Source of the DNA: Streptomyces mutomycini
GTDB taxonomy: Bacteria; Actinomycetota; Actinomycetes; Streptomycetales; Streptomycetaceae
NCBI RefSeq assembly: GCF_001700505.1
Contig: NZ_MAPV01000116.1
Span: 1 to 64,000, forward strand
DNA length: 64,000 nucleotides
Direction of reading: 5' to 3'
Position numbers and translations under genes: made by a program. The notes beneath the pieces were generated by a model, which saw only the letters and a list, made by a program, of their open reading frames with translations, searched no databases and had not been told where the DNA came from. This document shows positions 38,473 to 51,989 of this stretch, piece by piece; the stretch's first letter is position 1, and the number at the start of each line of letters is the position of its first letter.

Positions 38473-39678
38473 TCACAGGCGCTGCGGGACGTCCTTGACG
38501 AATACGAGGGCGTCGCTTGCCGCGAGGTGCGCCGGGTCGAGCGGGGCGTAGCCGAACCAGGGGGAAACACGGGGCTCGGGCAGCGTGTCCCCGAGCGCTG
38601 TGGCCAGCCGCGGGGCGTCGATGACGCAGTGGTTCTCCGGGAGCGTGCAGAGGAGCCCTTCGAGGGTGTCCGGCGGCGGCGCGTCCACTCCCTGGTGGCT
38701 GATCGTGCCGAGGGCCGTGGCCACGAAGGCGTACTCCTGGCCGAGCCGGGCGCTCACCAGCGCACCGGCGCTCCACCACTCCAGCGGCATGCCGCCCATC
38801 CGCATCGTGCTCCTCTCCCGCTGGAGGTGGGAGTTGTGGGCGTGGACGAGTGCCGGGCCCCGCGCGGCGACGGCCAGGAGGTTGTGAGCCATCATCTGGT
38901 CCCGCACCGCGACCAGCCGGTTCAGGCGGGCCGGCGAGGTGTCGGCCATCCAGTGGTGGTAGCGCAGCAGGCCGGTCGCGGTGCGCCCGTACAGGTTCGC
39001 CAGGTACAGGGCGTCCTGCGAGGTCGCCGTGACCAGGTGCGGCGTCTGCGCGTCGAGCAGCGCCACCAGGTCGTCGGCGAGCAGCCGTAGCCGGCCGGCC
39101 TCGGCCGACCGGCCCACGGAACGGGCCGGGTCCGTCATCGCGGCGGGGTCGGTCCACCGGTCGTCGGTGCCGAGCAGGCGGTCGAGCGTCTCCCCGGTGC
39201 ACGGGAGCAGGTCCGCGTCCACCTGGCCCGCGAGGTATGCGTGGAGTGCGGTGAGGGCCTGCCGGGGGCTCGCGGCGCCGGTGATCTCCAGCGGGCCGTC
39301 GAAACCGGCGAACCGGAGCCGCTCGGACGCGGGCCGGCCTTCGTTGTGGGCGCGCATCCAGCGCACGAGTTCGCGGTTGGCGGCGAAGCCGCCCCAGCCG
39401 TGGCTGATCCCGTGCTCCATGACCTCGTCGAGAGTGCCCGTGCCCCCGGTGACGTAGTCGTCCACCACCAGGCCCATCACGCAGTCGCTCTCGATCGCGA
39501 TCGTCCGGTAGCCCTCCTGCTCGACGAGCTGCCGGAAGAGCTCGTTGCGCAGGTCGAGCAGGGTCTCCTCGCCGTGGGTGGGCTCGCCCAGGGCGAGCAG
39601 CCGGGGCCGGACCGGGAGCAGCCTCAGGACGGAGGCAGCCTCGACGGCATGGGTGATGTCCTTGATGTCGGTAGCCAT
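38473..39678 (-). CDS. Erythromycin esterase-family protein
   Basis: A 401-residue EreA/EreB-like hydrolase. Family motifs are LGEPTHGEETLLDLRN near residue 30 (with the catalytic-region His and Glu), IAIESD, the His in MEHGISHGWGG, and VHAHNSHLQRE near residue 285. True Ere enzymes open macrolide lactones, but most family members have unknown substrates, so resistance is only a possibility. The start is the ATG at 39678 (MATDIKDITH); the frame extends to 39738 into the divergent promoter. It is divergent from a double-MerR regulator with 58 bases between them, which suggests control by it. Confidence 0.87.
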   Translation of the reverse strand: MATDIKDITHAVEAASVLRLLPVRPRLLALGEPTHGEETLLDLRNELFRQLVEQEGYRTIAIESDCVMGLVVDDYVTGGTGTLDEVMEHGISHGWGGFAANRELVRWMRAHNEGRPASERLRFAGFDGPLEITGAASPRQALTALHAYLAGQVDADLLPCTGETLDRLLGTDDRWTDPAAMTDPARSVGRSAEAGRLRLLADDLVALLDAQTPHLVTATSQDALYLANLYGRTATGLLRYHHWMADTSPARLNRLVAVRDQMMAHNLLAVAARGPALVHAHNSHLQRERSTMRMGGMPLEWWSAGALVSARLGQEYAFVATALGTISHQGVDAPPPDTLEGLLCTLPENHCVIDAPRLATALGDTLPEPRVSPWFGYAPLDPAHLAASDALVFVKDVPQRL

Positions 39679-39736
39679 GCCTTCGACGGTATCGCTGAAC
39701 CTTCGGTTGAAACTTTGCCGCGATATCGTCGGCCCC

Positions 39737-40522
39737 ATGGTGCGAAACCTTCAAAGCGGTGAACGGCTGAGGCCGGTTGATCTGGCGCGCGGGCACGGTC
39801 TGTCCACACAGGCGGTCAGGAACTACGAGGAGGCCGGCATCCTTCCGGCCGCCGGTCGCACACCCCACGGCTACCGCACCTACACCTCGCTGCACGCGGG
39901 GGCCCTGGGCGCGTTCCTCGCCCTGGTGCCCGGCCACGGCCACCGGACGGCGACGTCGATCATGCGGGCCGTGAACAGGGGCGCGGCCGAGGAGGCATTC
40001 CGCCTGATCGACGAGAGCCACGCCCAGCTCCTCGACGACCGGCGGACCCTCCAGGCCGTCGAGAGCGCCCTCCGCGACCTGGAGCGCGGTTCGGCGCCCG
40101 GGCCCGGTCCGGCATCCTGGCAGGCCGTCGGGTCCGGGCCTCGTGCGGAGTCCGGGCAGGCCGCGGCGTCCGGGCCCGGCAGCTTGTTCATCGGGCCGCT
40201 CGCACGGAAGCTCGGGATCCGGCCCGCGACGCTGCGCAAATGGGAGCGCGCCGGGCTGGTCCACCCGCGCCGCGACCCGCGGACCGGGTACCGCGTCTAC
40301 GACGGGGCCGCGGTACAGGATGCGCGGCTGGCCCACCAGCTCAGGCGGGGCGGCTACCTGCTGGAGCAGATCGCCCCGCTGATCGCCCAGGTGAGGGCGG
40401 CAGGCGGGCTGGAGCCGCTGGAGGCCGCCCTGTGCGACTGGCACGGCCGGCTGGCCGCCCGCGGGCGGGCGATGCTGACCGGGGCCGCGGAGCTGGAGGC
40501 GTATCTCCGCGCACGCGGATGA
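39737..40522 (+). CDS. TioE-like regulator with two MerR DNA-binding domains
   Basis: A 261-residue regulator with two MerR-type helix-turn-helix domains in one chain. The first (about 12-60) has VDLARGHGLSTQAVRNYEEAGILP, and the second (about 150-205) has LARKLGIRPATLRKWERAGLVHP. A helical segment and a Gly/Pro/Ser-rich linker (PGPGPASWQ) lie between them. This matches the actinobacterial TioE family as I know it. It lacks an obvious effector domain beyond the short C-terminal helices. It is divergent from the esterase gene, so it probably regulates that gene and itself through the 58-base intergenic region. Confidence 0.85.
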   Translation: MVRNLQSGERLRPVDLARGHGLSTQAVRNYEEAGILPAAGRTPHGYRTYTSLHAGALGAFLALVPGHGHRTATSIMRAVNRGAAEEAFRLIDESHAQLLDDRRTLQAVESALRDLERGSAPGPGPASWQAVGSGPRAESGQAAASGPGSLFIGPLARKLGIRPATLRKWERAGLVHPRRDPRTGYRVYDGAAVQDARLAHQLRRGGYLLEQIAPLIAQVRAAGGLEPLEAALCDWHGRLAARGRAMLTGAAELEAYLRARG

Positions 40523-40570: not shown

Positions 40571-42367
40571 TCAGCGGGCGACGGGGCCACCGGCCAGCCA
40601 GCGGGCGGTCTGTGTCCAGCGGTCGGGCGGGGACTCCTCCAGCAGCGCCGCGAACCGCTCGGGCCTGGCGAGCAGCCGCCGGTCGCGCGGATACAGGGCC
40701 GCGTGCGCCAGCAGCCAGCCGGCCAGCGCGTGCGGGTCCAACGGGCCGGTGCCGCTCAGCTGTTCGGTGTACGCCGCGCGTGCCGCCTCGGCGTCCCCCG
40801 CGACCAGCAGCTCATCGGCCGTCGGTGACCTGCCCGCCTCGAACTCCCTCAGCCCGTAGAGGCGCGCACGGTCGTCCTGCCAGTGACCGCGGCCCCGGTC
40901 CGGCGCGACCAGCGGCTCACCGCACGGTACGGGGGCGGTGCCGGAGCGCAGTGCGTTGACCAGGCCGTCCCTGTCACCCTCGGCGCACCGCAGGTTGCGC
41001 AGCCGCCACTCCACCCGGTGGCTGACCGCCGACGCCCGCGCCCTGGCCACGGTCGCGGGTGCCAGGGGCTCTCTCAGCCAGCCGTCGACGGTCTCGCACA
41101 GCCGGGCGACGAGCCGCAGGCCCGGTTCCGTGAGCCGCGCGTGGGTCGCCAGGGTGCGCAGCACCATGCGGGTCTGGAGCCGGCGCATCGCGAAGAGGAA
41201 CGACGCCCGGCCGGCCGGGTCCGCCCCGGTGTCCCTGGTCCGCTCCCGCCAGAAGCCGGTGACACCGACGAACGCGTACGCGCCGTGGAGGAGACCGGGC
41301 AGGTGACGGGGGTCGGCGCGCCAGGGCGCGTAGTGACGCTCCGACCGGTCGTCCTCGATGAGCGGGAACAGGTGGAGCAGCGCGCCGAGTTTGCTGTGCT
41401 GGAACTCGTGGACAAGGGTTTCCGCGAGGGCGAGGCCGTCCCGCGGCCGGGCGATCACCATGGAGGCGAAGGCGTCACCGGTGGAGGCGCTGAGCCCTTC
41501 GGCCGGCACCGGGAGCACCGCGTCGCCGTCCTTGGCCTGCCAGGGCACGATGCGGCTGATCTCCTCGGGCCGCAGCCCGCCGGGTTCCGTGCCGCCCCGG
41601 CGCAGAATGGCCACGGCATCCTGGAACAGCCCGTGCCAGGCGCGCAGTTCGTCGGGCGCGAGGCGGGCGGGGGCTATCGGTTCGTCCAGGTCACGGTAGG
41701 GGTCCAGGTCGTCGAGCCGGACGGCACGCGACCCGGGTCCGGTGTCCAGCCGGTGCACCGGCAGCCAGTGCTCCGATTCCGGCTCGTCGAGCGGGCGTAC
41801 GACGATGTCCGGCCCTTGCACCGTGCGGATGGTGAGGGTTCCGCCGGACACCGACGCCCGTACCGCGTGGAATGTGCCGTCTTCGGGGCCGGGCAGTCTG
41901 ACCATCCCCAGTGCGGGCAGACTCACGGCCGCGTTCCTGGAGGGCAGGAGGAGTTCGGCATCCGTTCCCGCGTGGACGGCTGCCGCCGCGGCCACGGCGG
42001 CGAGCTGTCCGGCATCGGCCCACAGCGGCGGCCCGGAGGCCGTTCCGTGCAGCCGGCGGAGTATGTGGGCGAGCCAGCTGCCGACCTGGGGGGTCAGCAG
42101 CAGTTCGTCGACCGCCTCGGGAGCTCGGGCGGCGGCAGACTCCAGCGTGGGCCAGACAGCCGTCGCGTCCAGAGGACCGAGGATGCCGGGCGTCGCGTCG
42201 AGGAGGTCGAGGAGCTCGCGCAGCAGCAGGATGCGGCGCGTACGTTCGCCCCGGACCAGGAACGCGACGGCCTCCGCCGAGCCGCCGCCTGCGGCGATCT
42301 CGTCGAACAGCGGGCCGGGCATACGGATCGGCGCGTACACGTTGCTCCCTGTCGTGGACGGATTCAT
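40571..42367 (-). CDS. HExxH-motif putative peptide-modifying enzyme (aKG-dependent type)
   Basis: A 598-residue protein matching the family called 'HExxH motif-containing putative peptide modification protein', now described as alpha-ketoglutarate-dependent peptide beta-hydroxylases. The signature LVHEFQHSKLGAL is at about 318-330. PGPLFDEIAAGGGS near the N-terminus and the HYAPWRADPR segment after the motif are also typical. Family members usually sit next to FxsA-like peptides in FxSxx-COOH cassettes, and here such a small gene lies directly upstream. The start is probably the ATG at 42367; a GTG at 42391 that overlaps the upstream TAG is an alternative. It is the last gene of the conflict island. 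Confidence 0.82.
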   Translation of the reverse strand: MNPSTTGSNVYAPIRMPGPLFDEIAAGGGSAEAVAFLVRGERTRRILLLRELLDLLDATPGILGPLDATAVWPTLESAAARAPEAVDELLLTPQVGSWLAHILRRLHGTASGPPLWADAGQLAAVAAAAAVHAGTDAELLLPSRNAAVSLPALGMVRLPGPEDGTFHAVRASVSGGTLTIRTVQGPDIVVRPLDEPESEHWLPVHRLDTGPGSRAVRLDDLDPYRDLDEPIAPARLAPDELRAWHGLFQDAVAILRRGGTEPGGLRPEEISRIVPWQAKDGDAVLPVPAEGLSASTGDAFASMVIARPRDGLALAETLVHEFQHSKLGALLHLFPLIEDDRSERHYAPWRADPRHLPGLLHGAYAFVGVTGFWRERTRDTGADPAGRASFLFAMRRLQTRMVLRTLATHARLTEPGLRLVARLCETVDGWLREPLAPATVARARASAVSHRVEWRLRNLRCAEGDRDGLVNALRSGTAPVPCGEPLVAPDRGRGHWQDDRARLYGLREFEAGRSPTADELLVAGDAEAARAAYTEQLSGTGPLDPHALAGWLLAHAALYPRDRRLLARPERFAALLEESPPDRWTQTARWLAGGPVAR

Positions 42368-42390
42368 AGCGGCGGCCCGTTTCGGCCCCA

Positions 42391-42579
42391 CTACTCGGCC
42401 CGCCCCGGTTCACCGCCCCCCATCGCGTTGGTGCGCGCACGCCGGAGTTCGGCAAGCAGACGTGCCGACCCGTCCGGAGCGGGCAGGCGTCTCAGGTCGG
42501 CGACGCCTACGGATGCCAGGTCCATGAGGTCGGACTCGAGGTGATCGGGTGTGCCGTCAGCGGGCACCGGCTGGTACAA
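42391..42579 (-). CDS. Small FxsA-like candidate substrate peptide
   Basis: A peptide of about 62 residues. The central part (SDLMDLASVGVADLRRL, then SARLLAELRRARTNA) resembles the leader of FxSxx-COOH precursor peptides, which have an (L/M)xDLxxVxxxxLRxL pattern. It lacks the FxSxx C-terminus and ends GGGEPGRAE. I chose the TTG at 42579 because AAGGGGGAG lies six bases upstream; a GTG at 42609 and an inner GTG are alternatives. It directly precedes the HExxH enzyme gene, so it is the likely substrate of that enzyme. Not a proven gene product. Confidence 0.6.
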   Translation of the reverse strand: MYQPVPADGTPDHLESDLMDLASVGVADLRRLPAPDGSARLLAELRRARTNAMGGGEPGRAE

Positions 42580-42667
42580 GGCGCGCTCCCCCTTCGCGAG
42601 CGGTGGCACAGGATGCCACCGTTTACTCCATCATGACGACTGAGACCCCTTACCGAAACCCGTGTGA

Positions 42668-43795
42668 TCACGCCAGCAGATCACGTATCGGGCCCAGGTC
42701 TGCGAGGAAGTCCTGTATCGCTGCCTTCAGTTCGGAGGCACGGGCGGGATCGTCATCGATCAGTGTCACTGCGGCGTACAGCTTCCACAGACCGTCCGGC
42801 TGAGTTCTGAGGGCGCGGAAGATCCCGATCACATCGGTCCGCGGCATGGGGTGCCTCGGCATCCGTGCGACGACGGCGGCGGGCAGCTCGCTGACCAGGG
42901 CCTGCCGTTCGTCACGGTCACTCATCAGCGGATACGCCATCAGGGCCGAGACGACCCGGGCGGTCGGAGGTACTGACGGCCGGGGACGCGCCTCCTTGCC
43001 CCAACCGATGAGCTCGCGGTGTCCTGGCGCTTCGAGACGGAGGCTGGGCGCTTCGAAACGGAGGCCGGGCCCCTGGGTGGTGAGGCCCGCTTGCCGAAGA
43101 GCGTTCATCCTCGCCTTGACCGCGCCGAACAACGGCAGGGGTTCCGGCAGCGGATCGTCCGGCAGTTCGCGCAGGACGATGTCCGAGAACAACCCGAGGC
43201 GGCGTTCCGGGTCGTTGCCCGCCCGCTGCCCGCGGCCCGCGGCGAACATCAGCGTCTGCTCGTGTGCGGCGACGCGCGCCCCGGTGGGAAAACGCTCGGT
43301 GGGCAGCGACTGGGGGAAGTGGTGCATCTCGTCGAAGGTGCGACACGCGTCGACCATCCACATCTGCACTCCGAGGCCCGGGGCCACGTCACTTCTGAGC
43401 CGGGCGAGTGCGGACTCGACGTGTATGTTGCGCCGGTCAGTCTGCGTGGCGTCGGCGGTGTAGAGCCGCGTGTTCTCGTCCTCGTCCAGCACCCCGTGGC
43501 CGCCCCACCACACCCACAGCGCCTCGTCCCGGCGGTCCGGGAGTTCCTGGACGAAGGCGCGCCTCAGGGAGTCGTGGTCCGCCGGGCGGAACGGGATGCC
43601 GGGGGCCGTCCCGGGCAGCGGTGCGAGGTGGAGCTGGATGTGGCCGTCGGGCACCCCGCGGGCCAGCAGCCAGTCGCGGAAGCGCAGGGCGTCCCGGGCT
43701 GGCCCCGGAAGGTCCCAGCCGGATCCGGCGGCGTACCGCTCGATGCCGACGACCAGGGCGAAGATACGGTCCGGCGGCACGGGCCTGCGGTTCAC
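42668..43795 (-). CDS. Caspase-like protease with C-terminal effector-associated domain
   Basis: A 375-residue protein. The caspase/metacaspase fold (about 8-235) has the catalytic His100 in VWWGGHGVLDED and Cys151 in WMVDACRTFDEM. The C-terminal helical domain (about 280-372: VVSALMAYPLMSDRDERQAL, then MPRTDVIGIFRALRTQPDGLWKL) matches effector-associated domain 2 (EAD2) of NTPase-centred conflict systems, a homotypic adaptor. The start is the GTG at 43795, which overlaps the hydrolase stop (GTGA). It is the probable executioner of the island, switched on by the NTPase and VMAP components. Confidence 0.87.
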   Translation of the reverse strand: MNRRPVPPDRIFALVVGIERYAAGSGWDLPGPARDALRFRDWLLARGVPDGHIQLHLAPLPGTAPGIPFRPADHDSLRRAFVQELPDRRDEALWVWWGGHGVLDEDENTRLYTADATQTDRRNIHVESALARLRSDVAPGLGVQMWMVDACRTFDEMHHFPQSLPTERFPTGARVAAHEQTLMFAAGRGQRAGNDPERRLGLFSDIVLRELPDDPLPEPLPLFGAVKARMNALRQAGLTTQGPGLRFEAPSLRLEAPGHRELIGWGKEARPRPSVPPTARVVSALMAYPLMSDRDERQALVSELPAAVVARMPRHPMPRTDVIGIFRALRTQPDGLWKLYAAVTLIDDDPARASELKAAIQDFLADLGPIRDLLA

Positions 43796-44958
43796 GGCAG
43801 CCGCTCCCCGATCGCGCGGTAGACAGCCGGATCGGTCCAGTAGGCGCTGTGCGCCACGGGGAAGGGCTGCCGGCTGTCGGTGGCGACATCGTGTGCCCGG
43901 CCGGGGAAGAGCGGCTCGGCGGCGTACCCCAGCAGGTCGCGGCGATCGTACAGATTCAGCCACGGTGGTACGTGACCGGGCAGCGGAGCGGGATGGGCGA
44001 GCGAGGGCAGCGCGCCCGTCTCGTACAGGAAGGGGCCCTGCGAGCCGACCGTTATCAGGAGTTCGACTCCCGGCAGGGGCCCGGATATGAGGGTGTCGAG
44101 CGCGACGATGCCGCCGAGGCTGTGTCCGAGCAGGACCACGGGCGGCTCCGCTGTCGCCACCAGATCCCGCAGGCCCTGGCGCATGTCCTCACCTCGGGCG
44201 AGGTACTTGAGGATGTCGCCGGCGGCCGGGTGCGCGGCGTCGGTCAGCGCGCGGCGGCGGCGCACGGCGTAGCGGGAGCCGAGGCGCACGATCGGCCTCC
44301 CCGCCAACCGCAGCAGAGGTCCGCGGCCGGTGCCCGCCGGCGGGGCGCCCAGACGCTCGGCAAGCACCGCGACAGTCGCGTCCCTCACGTCGCCGCCACT
44401 CTGCACGGGGCTGTCGGCCGCGAGTTCGGCGGCCACGACGACAGCGGTCAGCGCCCGGGCCAGTACCCATGCCAGGGCCTCCGGGTCGAGGGCCTCGGCG
44501 GCGGGACCTAGGAGAGGGTTGCGCGCCAACTCTGCTGCCGCAAGGGGAAGTCCGGGGCCGAGCGCGCCCGCCCCGAGTTCGGTGTCTCCGGCGATCCCCC
44601 GAAGGAGAGCCCTCGGACGTTCGTCCGGGAAGGCCGCACCGGGCGCCGTGACGCGCGGGCCCGCTCCGGCGGCGGCGGTGGCGAGCTCGGCCGAGGGGTC
44701 CTCGTACAGCCGGGCCCACTCCTCCGCCTCGTCGCTGTCGTCAGGACCCCCGGTGCTCCGACCGGTTCCCGCGCCGGGGGCCGCCGGGATACTGGCGCCG
44801 TCCGCGGCGAGCTTCGCCCCGTACCTCCCGCCCCAGTCGTACGCGATGACACGAGTCCCGGGAGCGGTTGTCGCGAGACCTGAGACGATCCGCGCGAGCA
44901 GCGTGCCGAGATGTGGTTCGCGCACACCTGTGCCGTGAGTGAAGACCACCGTGGTCAT
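43792..44958 (-). CDS. Alpha/beta hydrolase in the conflict operon
   Basis: A 388-residue predicted serine hydrolase. TVVFTHGTGVREPHLG gives the oxyanion-side His-Gly, the nucleophile elbow GHSLGG has Ser280, and the C-terminal FPVAHSAYWTD supplies the likely catalytic His. An insert of about 190 residues, rich in Ala and Gly, separates the first strand from the elbow. The start is the ATG at 44958. It is coupled to the caspase gene downstream. It may be a second effector, for example a lipase acting on membranes; the substrate is unknown. Confidence 0.82.
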   Translation of the reverse strand: MTTVVFTHGTGVREPHLGTLLARIVSGLATTAPGTRVIAYDWGGRYGAKLAADGASIPAAPGAGTGRSTGGPDDSDEAEEWARLYEDPSAELATAAAGAGPRVTAPGAAFPDERPRALLRGIAGDTELGAGALGPGLPLAAAELARNPLLGPAAEALDPEALAWVLARALTAVVVAAELAADSPVQSGGDVRDATVAVLAERLGAPPAGTGRGPLLRLAGRPIVRLGSRYAVRRRRALTDAAHPAAGDILKYLARGEDMRQGLRDLVATAEPPVVLLGHSLGGIVALDTLISGPLPGVELLITVGSQGPFLYETGALPSLAHPAPLPGHVPPWLNLYDRRDLLGYAAEPLFPGRAHDVATDSRQPFPVAHSAYWTDPAVYRAIGERLP

Positions 44959-45049
44959 GTGTCCGCCCCCGTCGTCTCTGTGCCGCCGGTCCTGCCCGTC
45001 GCTGTGGGAGCGGTGGGCAGGACCGGCGGTTCCCCGGTCTGCCTCGACG

Positions 45050-48000
45050 TCACATCGGCAGTGGCGTGATGTCGCACTCGATGCGCTGGTGGAGCCTGGC
45101 CGCCGTGTGCCAGGGGTGGTTCGCGCCGAGCAGACGCGAAAGCCCCTGTGCCGCGACACTGTTCAGCCGGTCGGCCTCCTCCGACTCGCCGAGTCCGCGC
45201 CGGTCGAGCGCCAGATTCGCCGTGCAGGCGAGTGTCAGCGGATGTTCGGGCCCGGCGATCTCCGTGAGCTTGGGGAGCAGGTCCGCGTCGGCGGCCATGG
45301 CCTGTGCGAAGTCCAGCCGCGCGTAATGGTCGTTGGCGCGGCACATCGCCGCCGTCAGCGTACTGATGTGGCGCGTCCCCAGTGTGCTCTCCAGGCCCTC
45401 CAGAGCCTGGGCGTCCAGCGCCTCCGCCCGGTCCGTGTCGCCCTGTGCCCGGAGCGTCGCGGCGAGGTTCACCCTGGCGAAGTGGGTGTAGGGATGGTGG
45501 TCGCCGAGTACCGCGAGGTAGCCGGACAGCGTCTGCTCCCCCAGTTCGCGGGAGCCGACGAGGTCGCCGTTCAGGCGGCGTTCGACCATGGCGTGGTTGG
45601 CGGCACAGAGCGCGTCGGTGTTGTTCAGACCGTAGCGGCTGGTGAACCGCTCGAGGGTCTGCTCGGCGAGGGTGGCTCCGCCCTCGACCACACCGGCCCT
45701 GCGGCGGCACACCGCGAGATTCAGCGCGGCGCGGATGGTGGCCGCGTTCGTTTCCCCGAAGTGGGTCACGTACGGCAGGTAATTGGACTCCTGGAGTGCG
45801 CGGGCACCCAGGTAGTCGCCGGCCTCACGCAGGTCGATGGACAGTCCGTTCAACGTGTTGAGCGTCAGCCCGTTCACGGGGCCGTACAGCAGTTCCCTCT
45901 GCCGCGCGGTCTCTTCGTCGATCTCCCGCGCCAGTGCGAAGTTCCCGTTCAGCCGCAGCGTCACACCGTAGTCGTGCGCCGCGCTCAGCGTCGTGGGGTC
46001 CTCCGGTCCGAACAGGTCGCTCGCCCGGGTGAACGCCTCCTCGGCCAGCACGCGCGCCTGCGTGAACTCACCCTGGTGCCGCAGCGCACCGGCCATCTGC
46101 CACATGGAGTCGATGAGTTCCTCGTCGGGGATCTGCGCCCCTCGTGAGATCGCCAGAGCCCGCTCGTTGTGCACGATCGCCTCGCCCGGGCGCCCCAGCA
46201 GCCGCAGGTAGAAGCCGAGGAGCTTGGTGATCCTGATGACGTGGAGGTCCTCGTCACCGGACTGGGCGCGCCACGCGGCCCAGGCCAGCCGGGCCTGGGC
46301 CGCGCCTGATTCGTGCGCACCCCAGTAGTAGAGGAAGAACACCATGTCGTAGACGAGGTCACGGACCCACGCGTCGGAGCTCTCCACCGCTCCGGACGCG
46401 ATCACGTGCGGGAGGATCGCCTGGTAGGCGGGCCACTGGTCCGGTGAGGCGGGCGCACCGGGCTTGGCCGTCGTGAGCAGCAGGTGGGCGGCCCGCGTCA
46501 TCCTGGCCCGCTCCTCGGGATCCATCCTGGCCACGATCACGTTCTGCATCAGCCGGTGCATCTGCAGGGTGGCGGTCTTGTGGTCCAGCCTCACCAGCGA
46601 CAGCTTGCTGAGGTCCCGGGTCGCGCGGGCCAGCAGCAGGGGGTCACGCAGGACCGGGTCGAGTTCGGGGGTGACCTCGACGTTACGGCCGCCCCTGAAG
46701 AGGTTGAGCGGGATGGGCTCCGGCGCCATGCAGGCGCAGATCTCGAGGAGTTGGCGTGCCGCCGGGTTGTCCCGTGAGAGGCGCCCGAGGGAGATGTCCC
46801 AGACCGCCGCGACCGGCAGCGGGTAGTCGGGGGAAGGGTCGAGTTCGAGGATCTCTGGGCGGCGCTCCTCCAGCAGGCTGAGGTACTCGTCGACCGGCAT
46901 CCCGGTGGCGGCGTGCCAGGCGCCGGCCTGCTCGACCGCGAGGGGCAGGTCCCCGAGCGCCGCGGCGAGCCGGTCCGCGTCACCGTAGCTGAGGCCGCGG
47001 GCGCGGCGCTGCAGGAGCGCGATGCTCTCCTCCCGGTCGAAGACGTCGACGCTGAGAGGCGTGGCGACGCGTTCCCACTCACGGTTGCGAGAGGTGACGA
47101 TGATCTTCCCGGGCCCGCCGTTGGGGAAGTAGGACCGGACGGCCTCGATGTCCTCGGCGTTGTCGAAGACCAGCAGCCAGTTGTCGAACGGCTTGCCCGT
47201 ACGGAGTGCCTCGCGCACGGCGGGCACCGCGGCGTTGGCCTGCGGTCCCACCTCCAGGCCGAGGCTGCGTGCGAGGTCGGCGAGCGCCCCCAGGATCAGG
47301 TTCTCCTGCTCCGAGGGGATCCACCAGATGACGTTGAACTCGCCGCTGTGGCGGTACACGTACTCCACGGCGATCTGTGACTTGCCGACACCGCCCATGC
47401 CGTGCAGCGCGTGCGGGAGTACGGCTGTGGTCTCATCCTCCCGCAACTGCCTCTCCACCGCCGCCAGAAGACTTTCCCGCCCGGTGAAATTCGGGTTCTT
47501 CGGTGGCACGTTGCCCATGATCTTGGGCTGGCCCGTGCGGACGAACCGTAGCTCCGGTGCCGTCGTGTGCGTACGCTCGTCGACCCTCCGGGCATCCGGC
47601 TCGGTGTCTACGGGTGGTGTCGTCGGCGACACAGATCCTCCAGGTGGAACCGTCGATTGCGACGGGGAAGCGGGGCCGTTCTCATTCACATCAGGTGCCT
47701 CTTTATCATCTCTTGTCCCCTCCGCCGGCACTCCCGCGCCGCGCGACATCCCCCGGTTCAGCTGAGCGGCCCGGCGCCGGTACGGCAGACCTCCCAGCGC
47801 CCTCAGCACCGCCAGTTCGATGCGCACCCAGGCCGGCCCCGCCTCGCGGTCCGGGAGCGCCGCTCCCACCGGGTCACGCAGCGCCGCTCGCAGGCGTACG
47901 CCCTGGGACCGGCCGGACCGCGACTCCGCCAGCAGGGCCACCGCCCGCGCGAGTTGGGTGCGGCTGCCGGTGGCCAGCAGGGCCTCGCGTATGCCGTCGG

Positions 48001-49381
48001 CGAAGTCGGGTCCGCCCTCGCCGTCCCGGTTCCAGTCGATGAGGCCGCCCATCATCACCTCGGACAGGTGCTCGGGGCGGGTCTCGGGCAGCGCGCGGTC
48101 CCGCAGTTCCTCGATGACGTCGAACCGCACCGGCGCCACGGCCAGCAGAACGGCGAGCTGGCGTGCGAACGGGCTGGCCAGTGAGAAGAACCTGCGGACG
48201 GCGTCGGCCGCCGAGCGTGGCCCGTCGAGCCTGGGCGTCCTCAGCCCTGGAGCGGACACGCCCTTGGCCATGGCCCCGGCCAGCACGACCGGAAGCGCCC
48301 GGCGTACACCGCGTTCGCCCGTGACCAGATCGGCCCAGGCACGGAACGATCCGGGGCGCAGGCTGAGCACCGGAACGGCCACGGATCCGTCCCCGGTGCC
48401 GGGCAGGACGTGGGGGTGCTCGGGTACGCCCTGGGGAGGGTGGCACAGGACATGGCGATTGAGCGACCCGAAACCGGCGGCGTCGAGCCGGGCCCTGAAG
48501 GGGTAGACCGAGGACCGGTGGCGCAGGTACGGCGGCAGCAGATGGACCAGCGCCGTGGGCCCGGACGACGCGAGCCGCCCCAGCAGTTCGTCGGCGCCGC
48601 CCTCCGCCCACCCGGGTGCCAGCCCGTCGGTCACCACGAGGAACAGCCGCGACCCGCGACCGTCAAGGAGCTCGGCGGGGTCGGCGCGCCTGTTGCCGGG
48701 CCAGCGCAGCACGGGTGCCTCCCCGCCCGGCAGCGTGACGTCGACCGTACGCACGTCCCGGAAGGCCCCGCTGCGCACCGCTTCGTCGGACAGCTGACGC
48801 AGGGATCTGTCCCACACGGGCATGGTGGGCGCCCTGTCCACGAGCAGCATCAGATCGAAGGCGCGCTCCTGCACCGGATCGAGGTAGGGGATCCACAGTC
48901 CGTCGATGACACCGTTCTCCGCGGTGCGTGCCTCGTCGAGCTTGCTCTCGTGGCGTGAGGGCACCCGACGGCCGAAGCCGCGCAGGGCCTTGGCCAGGCG
49001 CAGAGGCACCGCGGGGCGCGTGGGGCGGATCTCGTGGGGCAGGACCGAGTCGGGCAGGTCCTGCCGGCTCTCCTCGACACCGCTGATCTCCGCACCGTGA
49101 AGGCTCTCGCCACTGCTTCCGGCAGGCACGATCTCCGGTGCCCCCTGCTCCACGGAAGGGGCCGGGACATCGGTGGAGTGCTCGGCCACACCGTCAGGTA
49201 AGGATTCCGGGGCCCCGCCCGCCCCTGCGCCGGTGCCGGTGTCGGCTCCATGCCACGCAGCCGCCAGCCAGACCGCGTCGGCGAGGTCCTGCCAGCTCGC
49301 CTCACCGTCGGTTTCCTGGAGGTCGCCGCCGCTCGGCGCGGGCTCCGTATCCGGTGCGCGTTCCCGTGGCGAGCCGTTCAT
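45050..49381 (-). CDS. vWA-like / NB-ARC / TPR signalling NTPase (FxsT/SAV_2336-like)
   Basis: A 1443-residue cytoplasmic switch. Order: a disordered acidic N-terminus (1-120); a vWA-like domain related to the SAV_2336 N-terminal family (about 173-345, LLVDRAPTMPVW and LVVTDGL); a helical region to about 540; a low-complexity linker; NB-ARC ATPase (about 633-900) with P-loop GMGGVGKSQ at 661-669, Walker B WLLVFDNAED, IIVTSRN and the GDLPLAVEQAG switch; then TPR-type helical repeats to the end (about 960-1443). This matches the TPR proteins of FxSxx-COOH systems and the STAND NTPases of conflict systems. The ATG start overlaps the MoxR stop. The TPRs are the likely signal sensor and the NTPase the trigger. 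Confidence 0.87.
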   Translation of the reverse strand: MNGSPRERAPDTEPAPSGGDLQETDGEASWQDLADAVWLAAAWHGADTGTGAGAGGAPESLPDGVAEHSTDVPAPSVEQGAPEIVPAGSSGESLHGAEISGVEESRQDLPDSVLPHEIRPTRPAVPLRLAKALRGFGRRVPSRHESKLDEARTAENGVIDGLWIPYLDPVQERAFDLMLLVDRAPTMPVWDRSLRQLSDEAVRSGAFRDVRTVDVTLPGGEAPVLRWPGNRRADPAELLDGRGSRLFLVVTDGLAPGWAEGGADELLGRLASSGPTALVHLLPPYLRHRSSVYPFRARLDAAGFGSLNRHVLCHPPQGVPEHPHVLPGTGDGSVAVPVLSLRPGSFRAWADLVTGERGVRRALPVVLAGAMAKGVSAPGLRTPRLDGPRSAADAVRRFFSLASPFARQLAVLLAVAPVRFDVIEELRDRALPETRPEHLSEVMMGGLIDWNRDGEGGPDFADGIREALLATGSRTQLARAVALLAESRSGRSQGVRLRAALRDPVGAALPDREAGPAWVRIELAVLRALGGLPYRRRAAQLNRGMSRGAGVPAEGTRDDKEAPDVNENGPASPSQSTVPPGGSVSPTTPPVDTEPDARRVDERTHTTAPELRFVRTGQPKIMGNVPPKNPNFTGRESLLAAVERQLREDETTAVLPHALHGMGGVGKSQIAVEYVYRHSGEFNVIWWIPSEQENLILGALADLARSLGLEVGPQANAAVPAVREALRTGKPFDNWLLVFDNAEDIEAVRSYFPNGGPGKIIVTSRNREWERVATPLSVDVFDREESIALLQRRARGLSYGDADRLAAALGDLPLAVEQAGAWHAATGMPVDEYLSLLEERRPEILELDPSPDYPLPVAAVWDISLGRLSRDNPAARQLLEICACMAPEPIPLNLFRGGRNVEVTPELDPVLRDPLLLARATRDLSKLSLVRLDHKTATLQMHRLMQNVIVARMDPEERARMTRAAHLLLTTAKPGAPASPDQWPAYQAILPHVIASGAVESSDAWVRDLVYDMVFFLYYWGAHESGAAQARLAWAAWRAQSGDEDLHVIRITKLLGFYLRLLGRPGEAIVHNERALAISRGAQIPDEELIDSMWQMAGALRHQGEFTQARVLAEEAFTRASDLFGPEDPTTLSAAHDYGVTLRLNGNFALAREIDEETARQRELLYGPVNGLTLNTLNGLSIDLREAGDYLGARALQESNYLPYVTHFGETNAATIRAALNLAVCRRRAGVVEGGATLAEQTLERFTSRYGLNNTDALCAANHAMVERRLNGDLVGSRELGEQTLSGYLAVLGDHHPYTHFARVNLAATLRAQGDTDRAEALDAQALEGLESTLGTRHISTLTAAMCRANDHYARLDFAQAMAADADLLPKLTEIAGPEHPLTLACTANLALDRRGLGESEEADRLNSVAAQGLSRLLGANHPWHTAARLHQRIECDITPLPM

Positions 49382-50433
49382 CAGCGGCCTTTCGAGAGAT
49401 CGCGGAGAAGCATCTCAAGAAGCTTGAGCCCGTCGGCGTCCGCCCGGAACCCGTGGGCCGTGGTCAGCTGCACCGCGTTGAGCAGCTGGTCGACGGACTG
49501 GGTGCCCCCGCCGTCCAGCCGCCTGACGAAGTCGTCCACGAGGTTCTCGATGCCTTCGGGGCGCCGGCCCAGGTGGCTCACCACGATGGACACCAGCTGT
49601 TCACGGCTGGGCGGGCGCATCTCGAGCGGAAGGCACCTGCGCCGGAAGGCTGCCGGGAACTCGCGTTCTCCGTTGCTCGTGATCACGACGACGGGGAACT
49701 CCGCGCACTCGACACGGCCCGCCTCGATGACGGCCCGGCCCTGGGGGTCGTCGGTGAAGACGGACACCTCGGCCACCCCGGCACGCACCAGTTCCGGGAT
49801 CTCGTAACTGCCGTTCTCCAGGACGTGGAGCAGGTCGTTGGGCAGGTCGATATCGCTCTTGTCCAGCTCGTCGACGAGCAGCACCCGGGGGCGCTCGTAC
49901 GCGAGCAGAGCCGTCCCCAGCGGGCCGAGCGTCACGAAATCCCCCAGGTCAGGGGCGCTTCCCGTGTTGCTCTCCGGCTCCGCGGCGCCCTCGGCGCGCC
50001 AGGCGGCGATGGCCTGGGCCCGGCCGATGGCGTCGTACTCGTAGAGACCGCCGCGCAGTGTGGTCCGGCTGACGATGCTCCACGGCAGCACCCTGCCCAG
50101 CCCCAGTTCCTGGGCGATCAGGTAGGCGAGCGTGGACTTGCCGACTCCGGGCGGCCCGGTGATCAGCAGAGGACGGCGCAGCAGGAGTGCGGCGTTGACC
50201 GCGTTGATCTCGTCCTCGCGTAACTGCGGGCCCTCCTGTACGGTGCCGAGCCGGCGCAGCGCGGACTGCGCGTCGTCGGGAGGAACCTGCTGCAGCGGGC
50301 TTCCCGCGAACACCCGCCAGGGCGGCGGCTGGGGCAGCTCCGGCGCGTCACCGGCGGGCGGTCGCCCCGTTGCGTGGAACACCCTCCAGGAGGGGGGCGT
50401 GACGGACTGCGCCACCGAGACCTGCTCGGTCAT
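49381..50433 (-). CDS. MoxR-type AAA+ ATPase
   Basis: A 350-residue AAA+ protein. Walker A GPPGVGKST is at 93-101 and Walker B RVLLVDELDKSD at about 183-194. Sensor 1 is VVVITSNGERE, and an arginine finger region is AAFRRRCLPLEM. The N-terminal 55 residues are Pro-rich with a repeated (P)SWRVF/PPWRVF motif, perhaps a docking element. The start overlaps the VMAP stop (ATGA). In the ternary conflict systems known from Actinobacteria, a MoxR ATPase works with a VMAP protein and a vWA protein, which is the set found here. Confidence 0.88.
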   Translation of the reverse strand: MTEQVSVAQSVTPPSWRVFHATGRPPAGDAPELPQPPPWRVFAGSPLQQVPPDDAQSALRRLGTVQEGPQLREDEINAVNAALLLRRPLLITGPPGVGKSTLAYLIAQELGLGRVLPWSIVSRTTLRGGLYEYDAIGRAQAIAAWRAEGAAEPESNTGSAPDLGDFVTLGPLGTALLAYERPRVLLVDELDKSDIDLPNDLLHVLENGSYEIPELVRAGVAEVSVFTDDPQGRAVIEAGRVECAEFPVVVITSNGEREFPAAFRRRCLPLEMRPPSREQLVSIVVSHLGRRPEGIENLVDDFVRRLDGGGTQSVDQLLNAVQLTTAHGFRADADGLKLLEMLLRDLSKGR

Positions 50434-51935
50434 GCTGTCAACTCCTCGCAGTCGATCAGGCGGTTGGGATCATCCCACAGAAGTGCCAGATGCTTCCCGA
50501 GGGACCAGTTGTCACGGTTCATCCCCTCGGCCTTCTTGCGCAACGCGCTGACCTTCGAAGGGATTTGTGAGGGTGGGTGCGCCAGCAGCAGCGTCAGCAC
50601 CTCGCCCGACAGCTCGGGGCTTCCCGTTCTGCGGTCCCAGGCCGCAAGACCCACCCCCTGAGCGATCGCGGTGACGAGTGCTTCCAGGCCGAGACCGGGC
50701 AGTGCGGGTACGTCGAGGATGACCGCGGTCAGGCCTGGGTCCGCTATCAGCTTGGCACGCCAGCGGTCGAGCCGCTCCCCCTCTTCGCCGTGCCAGCGGT
50801 AGGACTCGGCCACACCGGCGTTCCTGAGTTGTGTCCAGCGTTCCCGCCACAGAGGCAGATATCCGTCCGTCTGCGCCGCTCTCATGCGTTCGAGCGACCT
50901 CAGGTGGACGTGGTAGCGAAGACTGATCGGCAGCGGGTCGCCACTCCATGTGCCCATTTCCAACCGGGCCATATCGTGGTTCATCAGGGAGAACGGCACC
51001 ACGAACTCCACCTGGGGCGTCGGTTCGCTCTCCGTCACCGGCATGCCCGCCCAGCGCTCCTGACCGCGCCCGATGGCTCGTTCGACCTCGTCCGCCAGTC
51101 CGTCGAGCGTCGTGGGGCGGACCTCCCCGGCCACCGGCTCCCAGTATCCTGGCGCGGCATTGACCCAGTGACGTACGTAGATATCGGCCGAACTGTCGTC
51201 GGCGGGCTCCACCATCACGACGAGGCAACGTGCCACTTCAGGGTCAGCCGTCGGCAGGGCCGCGATCGCGCGCCTGCGTTCCCCCAGCGCCTGCACGGCT
51301 TCCGGGCCGACTTCCCGGGCCCACGCGTCCGACCACTCCCTGAGCTCTTCGCGCAGCGCCGGCTGCTCCAGGAACGCGGTGATCTCGACCAGCACGAGCG
51401 CCGGGGGCAGACCGTCGACCTGGGTGTTGACCCCGCACAGGTGGTCGAAGCGCTGGGCCGGCGTCTGCCCGTAGGGGATGTCGACGCCCAACTCGTGGTT
51501 CAGCAGGGCGTGCAGACGGCCGTCGTCGACGCGCCGTACGTCGGCGAGCAGCCGGTGGATCTCGCGCACCGACCTGTCGGTGAAGTCGGGTGCACCCATG
51601 GCGCCCGCCCCGCCGGACCGGGCGAGCTCCGAGAGCCGGGCGAGCTGGGCGGAGGATTCGGGCCCCCCGATGACACCCACGGTGAAGGCCAGGGCCGCGA
51701 GGCCCGTTTCGTACCTCAGCAGGTCCCTGACGAAGAACAGCATGTCGGCGCGTGGATTCTGACGCCGATAGGTGAACTCCGCGCCGAGCTGTTCGGCGGC
51801 GAAGGCGATGAACTGGGCGCACTGATCGCGATCGGTCACGAAATCCTGCACGCACAGGAATTCGACCAGTCTTCCGATGAGTTGCGCTCTGGTCTCGTCC
51901 GGTTCATCCACTCCGGGCAGCCCGTGCACCACCAC
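50430..51935 (-). CDS. VMAP (vWA-MoxR-associated) conflict-system protein
   Basis: A protein of about 501 residues, probably the scaffold of the system. The C-terminal half (about 230-501) shows the VMAP-C pattern: VEFVVPFSLMNHD, RYHVHLRSLERMR, and the terminal GKHLALLWDDPNRLID. Two helical segments precede it. The second, FTDRSVREIHRLLADVRRVD onward (about 120-205), resembles effector-associated domains and could pair with the caspase's EAD. I prefer the GTG at 51935 (VVVHGLPGVDEPDE), preceded by a GGGGGTGG stretch. The frame opens at 51989 but would then include a TTA codon and the probable promoter. It is the first gene of the operon. Confidence 0.82.
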   Translation of the reverse strand: MVVHGLPGVDEPDETRAQLIGRLVEFLCVQDFVTDRDQCAQFIAFAAEQLGAEFTYRRQNPRADMLFFVRDLLRYETGLAALAFTVGVIGGPESSAQLARLSELARSGGAGAMGAPDFTDRSVREIHRLLADVRRVDDGRLHALLNHELGVDIPYGQTPAQRFDHLCGVNTQVDGLPPALVLVEITAFLEQPALREELREWSDAWAREVGPEAVQALGERRRAIAALPTADPEVARCLVVMVEPADDSSADIYVRHWVNAAPGYWEPVAGEVRPTTLDGLADEVERAIGRGQERWAGMPVTESEPTPQVEFVVPFSLMNHDMARLEMGTWSGDPLPISLRYHVHLRSLERMRAAQTDGYLPLWRERWTQLRNAGVAESYRWHGEEGERLDRWRAKLIADPGLTAVILDVPALPGLGLEALVTAIAQGVGLAAWDRRTGSPELSGEVLTLLLAHPPSQIPSKVSALRKKAEGMNRDNWSLGKHLALLWDDPNRLIDCEELTA

Positions 51936-51956
51936 CGACCACCCCCGTCGAGTCGG

Positions 51957-51989
51957 TAACGCCGTTATGACAGACCGTGAAGTTATCAC
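51957..51989 (-). promoter_or_regulatory. Possible operator and promoter of the conflict operon
   Basis: TAACGCCGTTA (51957-51967) is an 11-base palindrome, and GTGA-AGTTA-TCAC lies at 51977-51989. Both are AT-rich for this genome and sit just upstream of the preferred VMAP start. They are reasonable sites for a repressor or the promoter core, but no cognate regulator is adjacent and the assignment is tentative. Confidence 0.35.

What the first reader, a model, noticed from the sequence alone, without database searches (positions are those of the whole stretch)
42391..42579. FxsA-like peptide without the FxSxx tail
The small frame keeps the (L/M)xDLxxVxxxxLRxL leader pattern of FxSxx-COOH precursors but ends GGGEPGRAE, and there is no FxsB radical SAM gene nearby. 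Only the HExxH enzyme is present. This may be a distinct precursor class whose modification is hydroxylation alone.
Basis: partly seen in the sequence, partly recalled or inferred. Interest (0 to 1): 0.75.

Follow-up and report, generated by a model that had tools for sequence, protein, structure and literature searches.

The report
RxD-tailed precursor peptide beside HExxH oxygenase
A small conserved Streptomyces protein sits inside an operon thought to act in immunity or cell death and is probably the substrate of the iron enzyme encoded next to it; the peptide class was described in 2020, but what the enzyme does to it, perhaps oxidative trimming of its tail, is untested.

Summary
The frame is on the minus strand, 42579-42391: 62 residues, TTG start, conserved Shine-Dalgarno, ending GGGEPGRAE. 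It is a real gene: dN/dS is 0.11-0.28 among five close orthologues, and 49 of 55 genomes examined, the window's included, end [AG]RA[DE], against 1 of 368 long control frames ending [AG]R.[DE]. No FxsB lies in the stretch fetched around 33 of 33 loci; 8 of 21 genomes have none above cut-off. The next gene encodes an alpha-ketoglutarate-type HExxH enzyme.

The class is not new. The operon fits the VMAP-MoxR-vWA conflict systems with "RxD motif type" peptides of Kaur et al. 2020 (PMC7159879), who took the enzyme for a peptidase.

My reading: the HExxH protein is an iron oxygenase acting on the peptide's C-terminus. The tail resembles the ARMD tail that PosC removes oxidatively, leaving an amide (PMC12636437). 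"Hydroxylation alone" is possible, but oxidative removal of GRAE (predicted -414.19 Da) is at least as likely. Against a tight link: four GRAD-tailed relatives have an enzyme with Gln where ChlH and PosC have His. One mass-spectrometry experiment would decide.

The parts
42391..42579 (-). RxD-type precursor peptide gene, 62 aa, TTG start, TAG stop; tail GGGEPGRAE
42586..42594 (-). Shine-Dalgarno AAGGGGGAG for the TTG start
42601..42621 (-). inverted repeat CGGTGGCA-N5-TGCCACCG just before the Shine-Dalgarno; operator or RNA hairpin, function unknown
42628..42675 (-). conserved blocks (GGCGTGATCACACGGGTTTC and CATGATGG), the first overlapping the end of the caspase gene
40571..42391 (-). HExxH enzyme (aKG-HExxH peptide oxygenase family, TIGR04267), HEFQH at residues 328-332, GLLHG His at 369; start GTG 42391 (overlaps the peptide stop) or ATG 42367
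42668..43963 (-). caspase-like protease with C-terminal EAD2 (exact start uncertain); WGGHG and DACR motifs read in the translation
43792..45159 (-). alpha/beta hydrolase, partner of the caspase (exact start uncertain)
45050..49381 (-). vWA-type (SAV_2336 N-term) + NB-ARC + TPR fusion protein (NF041121, NF040586)
49381..50433 (-). MoxR-like AAA+ ATPase (AAA Pfam models; MoxR by position in the operon)
50430..51989 (-). VMAP core protein (VMAP-C, VMAP-M0, EAD2)

Best explanation
The 62-residue frame is the ribosomal precursor of an RxD-type peptide in a VMAP-MoxR-vWA ternary conflict operon. Its helical front part (residues about 11-53, with the DLxxVxLxxLRxL motif) is the recognition leader, and its flexible glycine-rich tail is the substrate. 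The adjacent HExxH protein is an iron/alpha-ketoglutarate oxygenase that works without FxsB and oxidises the tail. Its most likely action is alpha-hydroxylation of the Gly/Ala before Arg in the C-terminal [AG]-R-A-[DE], which removes that tetrapeptide and leaves a C-terminal amide (...GGGEP-NH2 here), possibly with beta-hydroxylation of a nearby side chain. The product would be a signal or toxin made or used when the NB-ARC/caspase system is triggered. Shown here: the gene is real, linked to HExxH, has no FxsB beside it, has a conserved tail and lies in the operon. Inferred: substrate relation, oxygenase activity, tail removal, signal role. My estimates: precursor and substrate of the HExxH protein 0.85; oxygenase rather than peptidase 0.75; oxidative removal of the tail 0.4.
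For: Linkage, found from the peptide side: HExxH downstream on the same strand in 20 of 26 hits (the 6 misses are weak hits, E 0.001 or more), in 30 of 30 best profile hits and in 12 of 13 weaker ones. FxsB: 0 of 20 and 0 of 13 loci; above cut-off anywhere in 13 of 21 genomes. Tail [AG]RA[DE]: 19 of 20, 21 of 22 new genomes, 9 of 13 weaker relatives; control 1 of 368 for [AG]R.[DE], 0 of 368 for [AG]RA[DE]. Seen from the enzyme side, the clade (100/100) holds 21 of the 100 HExxH loci: 19 with the tail, one SQAH, one unreadable at a contig edge. Enzyme: model matches 'SjiH-Ni' (22ob, Z 36.4, 396 aligned, rmsd 3.4) and the HExxH domain of ChlB, titled a novel alpha-ketoglutarate dependent oxygenase (8s5f, Z 23.8, 307 aligned, rmsd 3.8). 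HExxH, PW, an Arg and the following His align with ChlH and PosC-like proteins. PosC/PflC remove a C-terminal ARMD oxidatively, and PosC accepts Gly for Ala in part (PMC12636437). Helical front and low-confidence tail.
Against: No experiment. In PosC, Arg, Met and Asp of ARMD are singly dispensable and only the Ala matters, so a shared R and acidic end need not mean shared chemistry; Gly, the window's residue, gave only partial cleavage there. PosA has a different leader (nitrile-hydratase type), and the PosC-like enzymes are very distant in the tree. Four relatives with GRAD tails (L250, L251, L252, L254) have an enzyme with Gln, not His, at the downstream position. Six of 55 genomes have a precursor without the tail motif: SQAH, PRAE, GWAV, GRTA, GGGA, KRFD; a further KRFD case (L102) was kept out of the count. 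In one GRAD case in another genus (L245) the HExxH gene is not adjacent but on the other strand about 4 kb away. The motif is largely clonal, so counts are not independent events; A1 rows were picked by their tails and A1 includes the tail, which favours tail-bearing hits.
Confidence: 0.55

Rival explanations
1. Hydroxylation alone: the HExxH enzyme adds one or more beta-hydroxyl groups (+15.99 Da each) to the tail and leaves the backbone whole, as the first reader proposed and as ChlBH does on Asp and His.
For: Family name and the ChlB HExxH structure; ChlBH hydroxylates Asp and His (PMC12636437 introduction); E, N or Q near the start of the C-terminal block in many rows.
Against: In the published account ChlBH activity depends on a pre-installed cyclophane, which has no maker found here (no FxsB nearby). 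In the tail only A61 is invariant and R60 and G55 nearly so; no Asp, His, Asn or Gln position is.
Confidence: 0.3
2. Proteolysis: the HExxH protein is a zincin peptidase that releases a small C-terminal peptide, as Kaur et al. 2020 wrote.
For: PMC7159879 section 24; PflC hydrolyses truncated substrates lacking the leader.
Against: By sequence and fold the best matches are the aKG-HExxH family; PflC did not hydrolyse its full-length substrate anaerobically.
Confidence: 0.15
3. The small protein is not a substrate but a helical adaptor or inhibitor of the caspase or HExxH protein, the tail being a binding motif (degron or cap).
For: Conserved helical part with invariant R40, L42, E44, R47, R49 and a conserved C-terminus; caspase gene within the fetched stretch in 16 of 20 clade-A loci and 12 of 13 weaker ones.
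Against: No caspase hit in the fetched stretch of 4 of 20 clade-A loci while peptide and HExxH stay together; a short leader stretch aligns weakly with FxSxx precursors.
Confidence: 0.12

Closest known systems
RxD-type peptide-processing system of VMAP-ternary conflict systems (Kaur et al. 2020, PMC7159879)
   Same: VMAP, MoxR-like ATPase, vWA protein fused to AP-ATPase (NB-ARC) and TPR, caspase with alpha/beta hydrolase, small peptide plus zincin-like gene, no radical SAM gene, C-terminal RxD-like motif.
   Different: Their enzyme call was metallopeptidase; evidence here points to an oxygenase. The motif here is [AG]RA[DE], Glu as well as Asp. Their supplementary lists were not seen.
FxSxx-COOH precursors (FxsA, TIGR04268) with FxsB (TIGR04269)
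   Same: Short leader DLxxLxLxxLRxL aligns over 19 columns; many FxsB loci also carry NB-ARC-TPR and HExxH domains.
   Different: No FxSxx tail, no model hit, no FxsB nearby; hhalign only 31.7% probability.
PosA/PosC and PflA/PflC of Pseudomonas (PMC12636437)
   Same: Precursor plus HExxH enzyme; C-terminal A-R-x-D like A/G-R-A-D/E; HExxH and downstream His kept.
   Different: Different leader class, Gln run before the tail, very distant enzyme, MNIO-nitroreductase partner in the published cluster, not described as a conflict operon.
ChlBH HExxH domain (PDB 8s5f) and SjiH (22ob)
   Same: Fold (Z 23.8 and 36.4).
   Different: [quoted passage not shown] SjiH has Gln where the window has His 369.

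Membership tests
FxSxx-COOH precursor family (TIGR04268) | C-terminal FxSxx | tested here: not met
   Tail GGGEPGRAE; 0 of 20 clade-A rows end FxSxx
FxSxx-COOH precursor family (TIGR04268) | Model hit | tested here: not met
   No NCBIfam hit at E up to 1 for the window peptide, none for 20 members at E up to 10; HMMER filters drop most weak matches
FxSxx-COOH precursor family (TIGR04268) | FxsB radical SAM gene alongside | tested here: not met
   0 of 20 and 0 of 13 loci within the stretch fetched; only FxsB match of the genome is on contig C218
FxSxx-COOH precursor family (TIGR04268) | Leader resembling FxSxx leaders | tested here: inconclusive
   19 aligned columns, probability 31.7%, E 0.0005
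RxD-type peptide-processing system (Kaur 2020) | VMAP, MoxR and vWA core | tested here: met
   VMAP-C and VMAP-M0 Pfam and an AAA ATPase, SAV_2336 N-terminal domain; that the last is the vWA component is taken from the operon layout
RxD-type peptide-processing system (Kaur 2020) | AP-ATPase with TPRs fused to the vWA protein | tested here: met
   One 1443-aa frame with NF041121 and NF040586; same fusion in 17 of 20 loci
RxD-type peptide-processing system (Kaur 2020) | Small protein with conserved C-terminal RxD plus zincin-like gene | tested here: met
   RA[DE] end and adjacent HExxH gene; the window itself ends RAE, not strictly RxD
aKG-HExxH peptide oxygenase family | TIGR04267 domain over cut-off and HExxH | tested here: met
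   165.6 bits against cut-off 40; HEFQH
aKG-HExxH peptide oxygenase family | Conserved His downstream as in ChlH and PosC | tested here: met
   GLLHG in 20 of 20 clade-A enzymes; its role as metal ligand is inferred, and SjiH has Gln there
aKG-HExxH peptide oxygenase family | Iron and alpha-ketoglutarate dependent oxidation of the peptide | not testable with these tools
   needs an assay
PosC-like ARMD-cleaving enzymes | Precursor with nitrile-hydratase-type leader and Gln run before ARMD | tested here: not met
   62-aa peptide with short helical front and Gly-rich tail against PosA-like precursors

The most novel reading that the evidence does not exclude
A bacterial NLR-and-caspase-like conflict operon makes a C-terminally amidated peptide: the stand-alone HExxH oxygenase cuts off [AG]-R-A-[DE] oxidatively, and an Arg-specific protease (perhaps the operon's own caspase, at the R-x-R that is invariant in A1 before the tail) releases a short amidated peptide such as TNAMGGGEP-NH2 that acts as alarm signal or toxin. 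The protease step is speculation.
Probability: 0.2. Interest if true: 0.8.

Novelty: new member of a known kind. Interest (0 to 1): 0.5.

Why it matters
The searches made here listed no experiment on an RxD-type conflict-system peptide. This operon offers a simple case, one peptide and one enzyme with no radical SAM partner beside them, so the chemistry and its link to NB-ARC/caspase immunity can be tested with one co-expression. If the tail is removed with amidation, HExxH oxygenases would be a bacterial counterpart of peptide-hormone amidation inside an immune-like system.

Tried and rejected
Membership in FxSxx-COOH was rejected. Chance frame was rejected. FxsB acting in trans as a general requirement was rejected: 8 of 21 genomes have none over the cut-off (some are drafts), though the window's own genome has one on C218.

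I first thought that a downstream His (GLLHG) marks exactly the RxD-tailed enzymes: 20 of 20 clade A, against His in 5 of 40 FxsB loci (34 Gln, 1 Thr) and 9 of 40 other loci (31 Gln; one of the 9, L140, is clade A by enzyme) (which corrects two misread rows). breaks this: four GRAD-tailed relatives have Gln there. The reading that Gln means an inactive enzyme is only NCBI's model name for the fused form (NF040587) and is not tested.

My pairing count of 20 of 20 for A1 is by construction, since A1 rows were taken from loci fetched around HExxH matches and picked by tail; the peptide-side counts are the ones to use. The upstream inverted repeat as a regulon operator: only this site matches with 0-2 mismatches in the genome, and the RNA fold is not unusual (z -0.80), so its role is open. 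In one search (296 genomes of the class) the only hits besides the own genome and G095 were three weak ones that do not reach the tail; they were not examined further.

Dropped rows: one search gave 26 hits, of which 6 (L020, L023-L027) have no HExxH downstream and E of 0.001 or more and were set aside; L022/L102 (G076, tail KRFD) was kept out of alignment A1; L061 was dropped from the FxSxx alignment (it read as an unrelated sequence). Of 150 listed HExxH matches I fetched 100; matches beyond the list were not seen. L140 groups with clade A by enzyme but lies at a contig edge with no readable precursor. PosC-like enzymes were read in 7 of 9 ARMD loci looked at (14 loci in all; a stricter filter found none). 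The tree has long branches and an unsettled bootstrap. Matches below SjiH and ChlB have middling Z and are not used.

Papers: PMC12636437 parts 1-3 of 6 and passages read; PMC7159879 section 24 and passages read; others only as search listings. Haft and Basu 2011 and the Nat. Chem. 2024 paper on ChlB were seen only as citations. Residue masses are recalled.

Full report
WHAT IS THERE. The finding's frame lies on the minus strand: coding 42579-42394, stop 42393-42391, 62 residues. A GTG start ten codons upstream is possible, but the TTG and its Shine-Dalgarno are what is conserved: 19 of 20 rows (18 by script, L104 by eye) and 28 of 30 loci in a wider set (8 of these 30 repeat genomes of the first 20).

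REAL GENE. A protein search of 199 Streptomyces genomes gave hits in 26 at E up to 0.01. Twenty of the 26 are followed by an HExxH gene on the same strand; the other six are weak (E 0.001 or more). Among five close orthologues dN/dS is 0.11-0.28 in all ten pairs, with more than half of the changes in third codon positions; five other pairs of clade-A rows gave 0.39-0.60. A profile of 20 rows (A1) hit 61 of 391 genomes of the order, 60 of them in the same genus, and 5 of 296 genomes of the class, of which three were weak hits not reaching the tail.

THE TAIL. In A1, 19 of 20 rows end [AG]RA[DE]; the exception is SQAH. In the 30 best hits of the wider search 29 do, with PRAE as the exception; 22 of these are new genomes. 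In 13 weaker relatives chosen from the lower part of that list 9 do, the others ending GWAV, GRTA, GGGA and KRFD. Together that is 49 of 55 distinct genomes, the window's included. A1 rows were picked by tail and the profile contains the tail, so this count leans towards tail-bearing rows. The enzyme-side view does not: of 100 loci fetched by their HExxH match, 21 enzymes form the clade, and 19 of these go with the tail, one with SQAH, and one (L140) has no readable precursor. As a control, 1 of 368 distinct C-termini of long high-GC3 frames in the same loci ends [AG]R.[DE] and none [AG]RA[DE]. Just before the tail an R-x-R is invariant in A1. The model of the peptide has helices at 11-22, 26-30 and 37-53 and a low-confidence tail (mean pLDDT 71.4).

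THE OPERON. Upstream on the same strand lie a caspase-like gene with EAD2, an alpha/beta hydrolase, a 1443-aa SAV_2336-NB-ARC-TPR protein, an AAA+ ATPase in the MoxR place and a VMAP core protein. In the 20 clade-A loci, within up to 10 kb before and 4 kb after the HExxH domain (less for L104 and L160), I found NB-ARC-TPR in 18, its fusion to the vWA part in 17, caspase in 16, alpha/beta hydrolase in 15, the MoxR-like ATPase in 15, VMAP in 14 and FxsB in 0. Some misses are cut by the fetched edge or contig; L154 and L167 show no NB-ARC, MoxR or VMAP hit in the full stretch. In the 13 weaker relatives HExxH was found in 13 and FxsB in 0; in 12 HExxH is directly downstream, in L245, from another genus, it is on the other strand about 4 kb away. 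Of the other 80 HExxH loci fetched, 40 have FxsB.

FxsB ELSEWHERE. TIGR04269 is over its cut-off in 13 of 21 genomes carrying the peptide or its KRFD cousin. The window's own genome has one, fused, on contig C218 beside a canonical FxSxx peptide, so action in trans cannot be excluded there. Eight genomes show none over the cut-off.

THE ENZYME. The 606-aa HExxH protein scores 165.6 bits with TIGR04267. By sequence it matches PDB 22nu/22ob (E 1.9e-33) and the ChlB HExxH domain 8s5f (E 3.5e-9). Its predicted structure (mean pLDDT 80.3) matches 22ob, titled SjiH-Ni, with Z 36.4 (396 aligned, rmsd 3.4), and 8s5f, titled a novel alpha-ketoglutarate dependent oxygenase, with Z 23.8 (307 aligned, rmsd 3.8). 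HExxH, a PW pair, an Arg and the following His (GLLHG in the window) align with ChlH and with PosC-like proteins read beside ARMD precursors in Pseudomonas and Rhodoferax. That His is present in 20 of 20 clade-A enzymes, 5 of 40 FxsB loci and 9 of 40 others; the rest have Gln except one Thr. The 20 enzymes and L140 form one clade, support 100/100, in a tree with some long branches. Against a neat rule, four GRAD-tailed relatives and one that lost the tail (L256) have Gln, and SjiH itself has Gln. That the His binds the metal is inference from conservation.

WHAT IS KNOWN. Kaur et al. 2020 (PMC7159879, section 24) describe peptide-processing systems in about 20% of actinobacterial VMAP-ternary systems, with four C-terminal types including an RxD type. 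In RxD and acidic types the AP-ATPase-TPR is fused to the vWA protein, and the SPASM radical SAM gene is given for the FxSxx type. The window fits this description. They propose cleavage by a metallopeptidase and a role as toxin or signal. The later preprint on PosC and PflC (PMC12636437) shows that HExxH enzymes of the family can beta-hydroxylate and also remove a C-terminal ARMD oxidatively, leaving an amide; that Ala is critical and Gly partly accepted; and that R, M and D are singly dispensable.

HOW IT MOST LIKELY WORKS. The peptide's helical front is a leader for the HExxH enzyme. The enzyme oxidises the tail, and the tail's likeness to ARMD suggests oxidative removal of GRAE with amidation. 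The likeness is suggestive only: R and the acidic end are not needed by PosC, and the leaders are unrelated. No NCBIfam model matched these peptides, and the searches made listed no experiment on an RxD-type peptide; most subscription papers are not held.

VERDICT. A correct and useful observation of a known but, as far as seen, untested class. Novelty lies in the link to oxidative HExxH chemistry and in the sharp mass predictions, not in the class itself.

Noticed in passing
window 42601-42675 (minus strand): Upstream of the peptide gene: a conserved inverted repeat (CGGTGGCA-N5-TGCCACCG) right before the Shine-Dalgarno, and blocks GGCGTGATC..ACGG and CATGATGG, kept in many relatives. The repeat has no second copy with 0-2 mismatches in the genome.
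   Followed up: partly
L250, L251, L252, L254: A sister group with tails such as PRVNFAGGDGQPGRAD and the same caspase-peptide-HExxH order, whose enzyme has Gln instead of the downstream His.
   Followed up: partly
L114, L117, L121, L124 (CVS); L105, L119 (GGYNPQRDE); L110, L177 (SRFD); L112 (SRLD); L146 (KDSGGC): Stand-alone HExxH genes without FxsB preceded by small frames with a similar leader (ES/ET.L.DL) but other tails. They look like further precursor classes; their NCBIfam status was not tested.
   Followed up: no
own genome, contig C218 (L001, L029): A separate canonical FxSxx peptide with a fused FxsB-HExxH gene in the same genome.
   Followed up: partly
L193: A PosA-like precursor ending QQQQQARMD with a PosC-like enzyme in Rhodoferax lacus, outside Pseudomonas.
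   Followed up: no
L245 (another family of the order): A precursor-like frame ending PPGRAD without HExxH next to it; HExxH and NB-ARC genes lie on the other strand.
   Followed up: no
window 38473-39738 (minus strand): Erythromycin-esterase family protein (PF05139) next to a double MerR-type regulator on the other strand at 39545-40522.
   Followed up: no
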